The notes under the pieces were generated by a model. It searched no databases. It had not been told where the DNA came from and worked only from the letters and a program-made list of their open reading frames with translations. Shown here one piece after another: positions 23,983 to 25,813 of a DNA stretch of 44,864 bases. The translations under genes and the position numbers were made by a program. Source of the stretch: Clostridia bacterium (lineage in GTDB: Bacteria > Bacillota > Clostridia > Oscillospirales > Acutalibacteraceae); the NCBI GenBank assembly GCA_017623615.1, contig JAGAOT010000011.1:1-44864 (forward strand), in the 5' to 3' direction. Within the stretch, counting starts at the first letter, position 1; each line of letters starts with the position of its first letter.

Positions 23983-24520
23983 ACTGTATATGCCGCATTT
24001 TGAGGATTTTTTTCAAAAGCTCCGACAGCGGAACAACAAGCATTCCCACAGCAAGATTGCCGACGGCATGAACGGTGTCCCATGTAAGCCCCGCGGCAAT
24101 CCATGCAACCGTTTGTTTAAAATCAAATCCGAACATGAGAGCCTGCGCAGGAGCATAAAGAATGCCAAAAGCAAGACCGTGCAGGCAGCAGACAATCGGA
24201 TAAACGAAGCATGCCGTTTTTTTCTTCATGTTTTTCGGCAGAAGCATTGTAACTGCCCACAGTATTGTCCAAATGTAAAGATACGGTATCCACCATAAGG
24301 AAAAGCCGCTGAAAAGCCCGTTGAGCATAACATAAACGTAAATCGGGATTAGTGCTTTTTTGCGGAAAACAACCGTGTAAACCATTGTCAGCATTCCGAG
24401 CAGGTGAATGTTTGGCAATGCCTCCATAAGAATTTTGGAGCAGAACATGATTGCGCCGAGCATGGCAAATATGACCGTTTCTTCAATTCTCTGCAGTCTG
24501 TTATTACTTTGTGTATTCAA
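23981..24520 (-). CDS. ECF transporter S component, probably cobalamin-specific
   Basis: 179 residues with about five to six hydrophobic helices. The first helix has the AxxxA motif (AMLGA) that S components use to dock onto the shared EcfT/EcfA energy-coupling module; the module is not in this window. The start is a TTG at 24520 that overlaps the end of the DUF4430 lipoprotein gene by 17 bp. Because both lie downstream of a cobalamin riboswitch, the likely ligand is vitamin B12 or a corrinoid precursor, as in CblT/CbrT-type systems. The ligand assignment rests on the riboswitch and the neighbour rather than on residues. Confidence 0.82.
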   Translation of the reverse strand: MNTQSNNRLQRIEETVIFAMLGAIMFCSKILMEALPNIHLLGMLTMVYTVVFRKKALIPIYVYVMLNGLFSGFSLWWIPYLYIWTILWAVTMLLPKNMKKKTACFVYPIVCCLHGLAFGILYAPAQALMFGFDFKQTVAWIAAGLTWDTVHAVGNLAVGMLVVPLSELLKKILKMRHIQ

Positions 24521-24932
24521 GGCTGTATACTGCGTTTTCGTCGATTTCGGCGCCGTCTATGCCCGTTGTTGCGTATTCGCCGTTAACATAGAAAGCCCAG
24601 TAGCTTTGGTCAATGTCGTAATCGGCTGTTACGCCGTTAACGCTTTTGATATAAAGCCCGTAGTCACCCTGTTCACCCGAAATAAGATTATTTTCAATAA
24701 GAGCCTCGCCGAGATTTGTTTTATCCGTATGCACGGTAAAGGTAACGGTTTTGTCCTCAATTTTAACCTCAACAACGGCGGTGATTGCGCCTTCGCCGAG
24801 CTCGGTATCCTCGGTATACACGGCGTTTTCCCAAAGACCCGTTGCATCGGGTGCGTTTGTGCATGCTCCGAGGCAAAGCACAAAAACCAAAGAGAGTATT
24901 ACAGAAATTGCGGAGTTGATTGTTTTCTTCAT
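24504..24932 (-). CDS. DUF4430 lipoprotein (transcobalamin-C-terminal-like)
   Basis: 142 residues. A lipoprotein signal (lipobox LGAC, Cys24) precedes a ~110-residue domain with the DUF4430 pattern: NLGEALIENNLI, GLYIKSVNGV, QSYWAFYVNGEYATTGID and a terminal YSLEY strand. DUF4430 is related to the C-terminal beta domain of intrinsic factor/transcobalamin. Downstream of a B12 riboswitch and overlapping an ECF S-component gene, it is best read as the extracellular corrinoid-binding partner, tethered to the membrane by lipid. AAAGGA lies 9 bp before the ATG. That it binds B12 is an inference. Confidence 0.82.
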   Translation of the reverse strand: MKKTINSAISVILSLVFVLCLGACTNAPDATGLWENAVYTEDTELGEGAITAVVEVKIEDKTVTFTVHTDKTNLGEALIENNLISGEQGDYGLYIKSVNGVTADYDIDQSYWAFYVNGEYATTGIDGAEIDENAVYSLEYTK

Positions 24933-25005: not shown

Positions 25006-25166
25006 GGTATGAATATCCTGCCATATTCCAACCGAAACACATCTCCCCATGCTGCCCGAGAGACTTTTATGTGTCACAGAGCGATAAGCATTCCGACTTT
25101 TACGGTAATGGCTGTTGCTGCGGATTTTCACCGCGATTTCCTTATCATCGGGTATGCATTCATACC
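25006..25166 (-). promoter_or_regulatory. Cobalamin riboswitch
   Basis: On the minus strand the conserved core reads AAGGAAATCGCGGTGAAAA, followed by TCCGCAGCAACAGCC, the classic L4-P3 region of the B12 riboswitch. Later elements include AGTCTCTCGG and TATGGCAGG near the 3' end. The closing P1 stem pairs GGTATGAAT (from 25158-25166) with ATTCATACC (from 25006-25014), a perfect 9-bp match. It is followed by an intrinsic terminator (24971-24996) and the DUF4430/ECF genes, so high B12 should switch uptake off. The upstream promoter is at 25219-25247. Confidence 0.9.
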
Positions 25167-25356: not shown

Positions 25357-25440
25357 GTACAAAATAAACAAAATTAATTTCGCTTTATCTTTTATTATGT
25401 TGAGGCTGAATAATTTGGGAAACCTAAATATTTGTTGAAG

Positions 25441-25472
25441 TTGCACAAAAACAAAGATGAATGTTTGTGCAA
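25441..25472. promoter_or_regulatory. Operator-like palindrome upstream of the small gene
   Basis: TTGCACAAA (25441-25449) and TTTGTGCAA (25464-25472) form a perfect 9-bp inverted repeat with a 14-nt centre, ending 6 bp before the -35 box at 25479. The location suits an activator or repressor site. Confidence 0.5.
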
Positions 25473-25478
25473 AATCAC

Positions 25479-25506
25479 TTGACTTTTTTTGAGGATGGTG
25501 TATAAT
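25479..25506 (+). promoter_or_regulatory. Promoter of the 43-residue ORF
   Basis: TTGACT (25479-25484), 16-bp spacer, TATAAT (25501-25506); predicted start of transcription near 25513. Confidence 0.82.
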
Positions 25507-25537
25507 AAAGCCACAACAAAACGAAAGGATGAATGTT

Positions 25538-25669
25538 ATGAAATTCTACGAAATGTCCAACTACAGCGCGGAGAAAGAGCTCCTCAACGAAATCGAAAGC
25601 GAAAAGAAGTTCCTTACATTCAAAAAGCTTTTCAAAATCATGAAGCTCAACGCTTTGCTTAACGCATAA
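25538..25669 (+). CDS. Small cationic protein, 43 residues, unknown function
   Basis: I do not recognise this protein. An ATG at 25538 has AAAGGA 8 bp upstream and a strong promoter 30 nt before that. The ORF runs 43 codons to TAA with no cysteine and no signal peptide. The first half is polar and acidic (YSAEKELLNEIESEKK); the second half (KKFLTFKKLFKIMKLNALLNA region) is lysine-rich and amphipathic, the type seen in membrane-active peptides, small toxins or peptide signals. The transcript continues into three hairpins ending at a strong terminator near 25813. It stands alone between the divergent B12 transcript and the YlmC/YmxH gene. Alternatively the ORF is incidental to a small RNA, but the RBS, codon choice and promoter favour translation. 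Confidence 0.65.
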   Translation: MKFYEMSNYSAEKELLNEIESEKKFLTFKKLFKIMKLNALLNA

Positions 25670-25700
25670 GCCTGAGGAGCGGCTTTCAGCCCGTAAAAAC

Positions 25701-25722
25701 ATCAACCCGCAAGGTTGATTTT
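25701..25722 (+). terminator. First hairpin after the 43-residue ORF
   Basis: ATCAACC-cgcaa-GGTTGAT (25701-25707 with 25713-25719) followed by TTTATAT; a modest terminator or the first element of a structured 3' region. Confidence 0.5.
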
Positions 25723-25729
25723 ATATAAT

Positions 25730-25813
25730 CTGAGAAAGGTTTTACCTCTCAGAAACTTGGACAACAGCACAGACCGTAACAAAGAGTTTTGTCTTTGTAC
25801 GGTCTGTTTTTTG
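25730..25813 (+). terminator. Hairpin plus strong terminator of the small transcript
   Basis: CTGAG-N-CTCAG (about 25731-25753) is followed by a 15-bp stem with one bulge (25769-25784 with 25793-25807, ACAGACCGT...ACGGTCTGT) and TTTTTT. This ends the transcript begun near 25513. Confidence 0.8.

What the first reader, a model, noticed from the sequence alone, without database searches (positions are those of the whole stretch)
25441..25813. Free-standing small gene: palindrome, consensus promoter, 43-residue cationic ORF, chain of hairpins
Between larger transcripts lies a complete miniature gene that ordinary annotation would miss: a 9-bp inverted repeat abutting the -35 box, TTGACT-N16-TATAAT, a good ribosome binding site, an ORF with an acidic front and lysine-rich amphipathic back, then three hairpins, the last a strong terminator. 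It may be a dual-function RNA (peptide plus structured 3' part), a toxin or antimicrobial peptide, or a signalling peptide precursor. I know of no family with this sequence.
Basis: partly seen in the sequence, partly recalled or inferred. Interest (0 to 1): 0.7.

Follow-up and report, generated by a model that had tools for sequence, protein, structure and literature searches.

The report
Conserved unannotated small-protein gene
A 43-residue protein gene with its own rigidly conserved promoter and a structured RNA tail, missed by standard family libraries, is kept by many species of one family of gut bacteria and shares its control site with a cell-wall gene of the kind linked to dormancy.

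Summary
Orthologs were found in 39 of 45 same-genus genomes and, by profile, in 15 other genera of the family at E<=1e-4. No credible match outside the family appeared in order- and class-wide samples. The ORF is under purifying selection (pN<pS in 46 of 47 related pairs). Pfam, NCBIfam, PDB sequence, phage and viral-contig searches gave no convincing relative.

The "9-bp palindrome" is part of a fixed two-site operator: TTGTGCANNNTGCACAA (O1) centred 39 bp upstream of TTGAC, plus a TTGTGCA half-site (O2) next to -35. This spacing holds in 37 of 38 tabulated genus loci and, for O1, in 17 of 20 loci from other genera. The same palindrome lies 28-29 bp upstream of a YabE-like muralytic-type gene in 27 of 29 loci, this genome included. 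The 3' RNA has covarying hairpins around UUUNAUAUA (42, 45, 106).

Best reading: a small intracellular helical regulator in a cell-wall/dormancy regulon, controlled by a dimeric factor, probably an activator and possibly a 7TM-LuxR protein. The peptide's target and the regulator's identity are inferred. Antimicrobial and toxin readings are not supported.

The parts
25432..25448 (+). O1: upstream operator, form of TTGTGCANNNTGCACAA (here TTGTTGAAGTTGCACAA)
   Evidence: Centre 39 bp upstream of TTGAC in 37 of 38 genus loci, 0-3 mismatches of 14; same place in 17 of 20 loci of other genera
25465..25471 (+). O2: TTGTGCA half-site next to the -35 box
   Evidence: Exact at this place in 36 of 38 genus loci
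25479..25506 (+). Promoter TTGACT-N16-TATAAT
   Evidence: TATAAT and the 16-nt spacer in 38 of 38 genus loci
25523..25529 (+). Ribosome binding site GAAAGGA
   Evidence: a comparable site precedes the ORF in the orthologs listed
25538..25669 (+). ORF of 43 codons, small-protein family without a Pfam or NCBIfam name
25701..25719 (+). Hairpin II of the 3' RNA element
   Evidence: 89% of cells paired, 5 of 7 pairs with two-sided changes
25719..25727 (+). Linker TTTTATATA (family form TTTNATATA)
   Evidence: Exact form in 24 of 38 genus loci within 110 nt of the stop; 9 of 7600 shuffled stretches
25729..25753 (+). Hairpin III of the 3' RNA element
   Evidence: 67% of cells paired, 4 of 7 pairs with two-sided changes; misaligned in part
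25770..25812 (+). Intrinsic-terminator hairpin and T-run
   Evidence: stem is too long-looped for the simple scan, which did not list it

Best explanation
A monocistronic, tightly regulated gene for a 40-49-residue, probably two-helix intracellular protein, old in one family of Clostridia. SHOWN by comparison: the ORF is under purifying selection; a two-site operator and a 16-nt-spacer promoter are held at fixed distances; the same palindrome sits upstream of a YabE-like (DUF348-G5-3D) gene; the mRNA ends in covarying hairpins around UUUNAUAUA in most of the genus. INFERRED: a dimeric factor binds TTGTGCA half-sites on one face of the DNA (centres 6, 28 and 39 bp from TTGAC, differing by multiples of 11; about -40, -63, -73) and activates the small protein together with the YabE-like wall protein, perhaps also an SPFH operon. 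The leading candidate is a membrane 7TM-LuxR (HisKA_7TM-GerE) protein. The small protein then works by protein-protein contact, most likely as feedback or checkpoint regulator of that response (this last step about 1 in 4). The 3' hairpins stabilise or process the mRNA or add an RNA function.
For: Orthologs in 39 of 45 genus genomes; pN<pS in 46 of 47 pairs; O1 at 39 bp in 37 of 38, O2 exact in 36 of 38, spacer 16 in 38 of 38; same geometry in other genera, other offsets 1 of 1140; TTGTGCA-N6-CTTGAC: 36 of 43 matches at this gene, reversed control 0; YabE-like promoters: site at 28 bp in 24 of 29 and at 29 bp in 3, domains by Pfam; 9 of 14 distinct sites of a related motif at an SPFH/7TM-LuxR promoter; covariation 35 two-sided cells against 15.2 shuffled.
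Against: No expression data. Both promoters are near consensus, which is unusual for activator-dependent ones. The SPFH/7TM-LuxR motif has N5, not N6, between its halves, a different geometry, and its reversed control gave 1 match. The 7TM-LuxR gene was not looked for in this genome. In three related loci of another genus O2 is lost (L054-L056) and in L117 O1 is. Two covariation measures were not above shuffles (pairs with two-sided change 88 of 500, pair types 32 of 500). No structure could be predicted.
Confidence: 0.6

Rival explanations
1. Dual-function RNA of the SR1 type: besides the peptide, the 3' part is a base-pairing regulatory RNA with UUUNAUAUA as exposed seed.
For: Short unpaired constant stretch between covarying hairpins; found once per genome, behind this ORF, for all 18 matches at E<=1e-4.
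Against: Exact linker absent in 14 of 38 genus loci; no target found; pairing of UUUCAUAUA with start codons fails where the fourth base is A.
Confidence: 0.2
2. The same gene, but O1/O2 bind a repressor: the near-consensus promoter is off until a signal releases it.
For: Near-perfect promoter in all 38 loci; O2 borders the -35 box.
Against: O1 and the YabE-like site lie far upstream of -35, in step with the helix, which suits activators better.
Confidence: 0.3
3. Antimicrobial, toxin or secreted signalling peptide.
For: Short, partly amphipathic; this copy has net +2 (75).
Against: Net charge from -3 to +4 over 38 orthologs; no neighbour kept across clades; no phage or viral match; conserved single gene in most species of the genus.
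Confidence: 0.05
4. Leader peptide or attenuator of the downstream PRC-barrel gene (25859).
For: That gene follows in the closest relatives.
Against: A terminator separates them; the downstream gene differs in other clades while the unit stays.
Confidence: 0.03

Closest known systems
SR1/SR1P of Bacillus subtilis (dual-function sRNA with a small protein)
   Same: Free-standing regulated small gene: ~40-residue protein, structured RNA, own terminator (SR1 from abstracts in the listing; its size and regulation recalled)
   Different: No sequence kinship seen; base-pairing targets unknown here; operator and co-regulated wall gene differ
Small helical inhibitors: Sda, Spo0E-like proteins; anti-activators such as TraM and Aqs1
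   Same: Small, helix-rich, act by binding a regulator (TraM and Aqs1 from passages of PMC13043044; Sda and Spo0E recalled)
   Different: Pfam lists neither Spo0E-like nor Sda for any of 36 members at E<=0.1; target unknown
YabE/Sps proteins, Firmicute counterparts of resuscitation-promoting factors
   Same: The co-regulated gene has the DUF348-G5-3D layout (PMC1084345, abstract)
   Different: It is the partner gene, not the small protein; its enzymatic activity was not tested
LuxR-type promoters (lux/tra boxes)
   Same: Palindromic box just upstream of -35 (PMC13043044, passage); TGTGCA half-site as in the tra box (recalled)
   Different: Three central bases here, four in the tra box (recalled); different phylum; regulator only a candidate

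Membership tests
Dual-function sRNA (SR1-like) | Translated small ORF | tested here: met
   Purifying selection, pN<pS in 46 of 47 pairs; translation itself not tested
Dual-function sRNA (SR1-like) | RNA part acts by base-pairing with other mRNAs | not tested
   Only conserved structure and linker shown
Spo0E-like / Sda sporulation inhibitors | Match to the family profile | tested here: not met
   Not among Pfam rows at E<=0.1 for 36 members
LuxR-type regulated promoter | Palindromic site at fixed distance from -35 | tested here: met
   also true of many other regulator families
LuxR-type regulated promoter | Binding of the LuxR-type protein to the site | not testable with these tools
   Needs a binding assay
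Antimicrobial peptide | Conserved positive charge | tested here: not met
   Net -3 to +4, mean 0.5, 38 orthologs
Toxin-antitoxin | Partner gene kept beside the toxin | tested here: not met
   No neighbour shared across clades in 51 stretches, ORFs of 70 aa and more only; an antisense RNA partner was not tested

The most novel reading that the evidence does not exclude
A family-wide dormancy/envelope circuit in gut Clostridia: a membrane-embedded 7TM-LuxR sensor binds TGTGCA palindromes and co-activates an Rpf-like wall factor, an SPFH membrane operon and a dual product (two-helix small protein plus a structured RNA with a constant UUUNAUAUA) that closes the loop as anti-activator and post-transcriptional regulator.
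Probability: 0.15. Interest if true: 0.85.

Novelty: new variant of a known kind. Interest (0 to 1): 0.6.

Why it matters
It is a small-protein family without a curated model whose promoter geometry is kept to the base pair across genera, which marks a core regulatory function in rumen and colon Clostridia known mostly from metagenomes. The co-regulated YabE-like gene gives a testable handle: a link to wall proteins proposed to control culturability in Firmicutes. The promoter signature TTGTGCA-N6-CTTGAC also finds the gene where protein similarity fails.

Tried and rejected
DnaA-box control (Sda-like): rejected; the constant bases are not those of TTATNCACA (recalled). CRP-type site: half-sites one base closer than TGTGA-N6-TCACA (recalled). 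G000 C19 site with 1 mismatch: part of a TAGTGC-type repeat upstream of a 72-aa protein that reads like a small HTH repressor (by eye). G000 C9 site with 2 mismatches: intergenic, upstream of an M23 peptidase gene, but no TTGAC promoter at a like distance; left as a lead. Pairing of UUUCAUAUA with start codons: broken where the fourth base is A. Neighbourhoods: 51 stretches, largest cluster in 10, no partner across clades. Rfam on 8 YabE-like promoter loci: nothing at gathering. Motif literature search: listing only, two papers with the string, contexts not read. Small-protein literature searches: no paper on this family among the rows listed. One search used N5 where the palindrome needs N6, so it did not test the intended pattern; its hits are reported as a related motif. 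Structure prediction never ran, so no fold claim goes beyond the sequence pattern. Plasmid records were not searched.

Full report
OBSERVATION. The inverted repeat has no chance counterpart in 100 shuffles, the promoter matches 11 of 12 bases and the transcript is more structured than all 100 shuffles (z -5.8). The ORF is 25538-25669, 43 aa.

A CONSERVED GENE. tblastn in 99 relatives gave matches at E<=1 in 40; the ten best besides the window's own have 62-76% identity, and the weak end includes chance hits inside long frames. With a profile, 83 of 398 genomes drawn from the family matched at E<=0.1; the matches at E<=1e-4 lie in 16 genera, the window's own included, and most of the weaker ones look like chance. 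In 394 genomes drawn from the order and 291 from the class (family members included), matches at E<=0.001 outside the family were one (24 residues inside a 454-codon frame, G488) and none. In the genus I tabulated 38 of 45 genomes, those with a peptide in hand; of the seven left out, G018 proved to have it too, so 39 of 45. Many genomes are incomplete. Of 47 pairs of equal length and at least 60% identity, 46 have pN<pS (pairs not independent; the exception is G017/G027). The 12 named records with orthologs are metagenome assemblies titled Clostridia, Oscillospiraceae or Ruminococcaceae bacterium, those with a stated source from goat, water buffalo, roe deer, sheep or horse gut or faeces.

NO KNOWN FAMILY. 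Pfam and NCBIfam gave no row at E<=5 for four members. Of the 36 members of A3, only one to three matched any one family at E<=0.1: best E 0.0065 (HTH_SUN2, Pfam), 0.025 (PHROGs), 0.0095 (PDC-S02, PADLOC); I take these as chance. The PDB gave one row at E 0.58. Phage records (one member as query) and viral contigs (A2) gave none.

THE PROMOTER. In all 38 genus loci TATAAT is perfect and the spacer is 16; TTGTGCA (O2) is exact at one place in 36; the best form of TTGTGCANNNTGCACAA (O1) is centred 39 bp upstream of TTGAC in 37 and 38 bp in one, with 0-3 mismatches of 14. From other genera I scored 21 loci (L038 and L057-L060, also in hand, were not scored): L118 had no promoter by my rule; of the other 20, O1 at 39 bp has at most 4 mismatches in 17 and O2 at most 2 of 7 in 17, while other offsets gave 1 of 1140; O2 is lost in L054-L056 and O1 in L117. 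TTGTGCA-N6-CTTGAC alone hit 36 of 45 genomes with 43 matches, 36 of them at this gene, reversed control 0. It led to copies that the first tblastn had missed, misplaced or scored above E 0.1: G001, G029, G032, G037, G038 and G040; G007 came up with the three-site pattern.

A SECOND TARGET. TTGTGCANNNTGCACAA has 19 distinct sites in 14 of 45 genus genomes: 8 at the small-protein gene, 11 elsewhere. Of these 11, eight are promoters of one orthologous gene, centre exactly 28 bp upstream of TTGACA in all eight; the other three (G004 C35, G015 C31, a second site in G023 C10) share no gene. The gene's product has DUF348, G5 and 3D domains, the layout of YabE, described as the Firmicute counterpart of resuscitation-promoting factors and muralytic (PMC1084345, abstract). 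The gene was found in 36 of 45 genomes. Of the 30 loci returned I scored 29 (L217, a partial match, left out): site at 28 bp with at most 3 mismatches in 24, at 29 bp in 3, 4 mismatches in 2; other offsets 3 of 696, which are those 29-bp sites. This genome's copy (L198) has TTGTGCAAAATGAACAA, one mismatch. The centres 6 (O2, if read as half of a palindrome), 28 and 39 differ by multiples of 11, so the bound protein would sit on one face at about -40, -63 and -73, positions usual for activators (established knowledge, not a test).

A POSSIBLE REGULATOR. A pattern meant to find more targets was one base short (N5 instead of N6). Of its 14 distinct sites (reversed control: 1), 9 lie at one kind of place: six upstream of a gene for a HisKA_7TM-GerE (LuxR HTH) protein, five of these divergent from an SPFH (Band_7) gene, and three upstream of the SPFH gene in other species. 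The SPFH gene heads a cluster in the two stretches seen. LuxR-type boxes lie just upstream of -35 (PMC13043044, passages), and TGTGCA is the tra-box half-site (recalled). I name this 7TM-LuxR protein as leading candidate, without proof; the different spacing counts against it.

THE RNA. Twenty genus loci chosen for having the linker show hairpin II, TTTNATATA and hairpin III, so the constant linker there is partly a matter of choice; unselected, the exact TTTNATATA follows the stop within 110 nt in 24 of 38 genus loci, against 9 of 7600 shuffled stretches. For the structure that I named, 78% of cells pair and 35 cells carry two-sided changes against 65.9% and 15.2 in shuffles (0 of 500), and sliding the partners destroys the pairing; two other measures do not stand out. 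Model R1 matched in 24 of 60 genomes at E<=0.1; all 18 matches at E<=1e-4 lie at this gene, 8 of the 10 weaker ones do not. In the 38 genus loci it lies behind the ORF in 25 at E<=0.012, five of them not used to build it. It is unrecognisable in the clade with peptides like MNSYFGYERE. A hairpin with a like linker also follows the ORF in several other genera. Rfam: nothing at gathering in the window but the AdoCbl-II riboswitch; in 15 loci at E<=1 only two sub-threshold rows in L041 fall in the 3' region.

CONTEXT. In close relatives the next gene is a PRC-barrel gene (in the window PF05239 just under its cut-off; YlmC/YmxH by recall), but no neighbour is shared across clades in 51 stretches. 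The gene is autonomous. Some genomes of other genera carry second or tandem copies.

HOW IT PROBABLY WORKS. A dimeric factor reads an envelope or growth-state signal and turns on the small protein and the YabE-like protein together. The sequence pattern (two helix-like stretches around K-x-F-S/T) suggests a helical hairpin that binds another protein; feedback on the regulator or a checkpoint on growth resumption is my committed guess, about one in four for that step. The RNA tail may protect the message or act in its own right.

VERDICT. Observation confirmed, interpretation half right: a conserved small-protein gene new to the libraries searched, with an unusually rigid promoter and a link to a dormancy-type wall protein.

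Noticed in passing
window 25082-25150 (-): AdoCbl-II (cobalamin) riboswitch upstream of a DUF4430 gene (24504-24932 -) and a further membrane-like ORF: likely a cobalamin-uptake unit.
   Followed up: no
L194-L198, L201, L202, L204-L207, L209: 12 of 29 YabE-like promoters carry a second inverted repeat, TTGACAAA-N-TTTGTCAA, filling the space from -35 to -10: perhaps a repressor site besides the TTGTGCA site.
   Followed up: partly
L051, L057, L058; G371:C2: Second copies of the small protein close behind the first (L051, L057, L058) or 7.5 kb away (G371): a diversifying family.
   Followed up: no
L155 6047 (G019:C22:31346): The operator-promoter pattern without a recognisable small-protein ORF behind it.
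   Followed up: partly
L113 1510-1532 (G000:C9): A 2-mismatch form of the inverted repeat lies upstream of an M23 peptidase gene in the window's own genome; no matching promoter spacing.
   Followed up: partly
L112 1501-1560 (G000:C19): TAGTGC-type repeats upstream of a 72-aa HTH-like protein: probably an autoregulated repressor of a mobile element.
   Followed up: no
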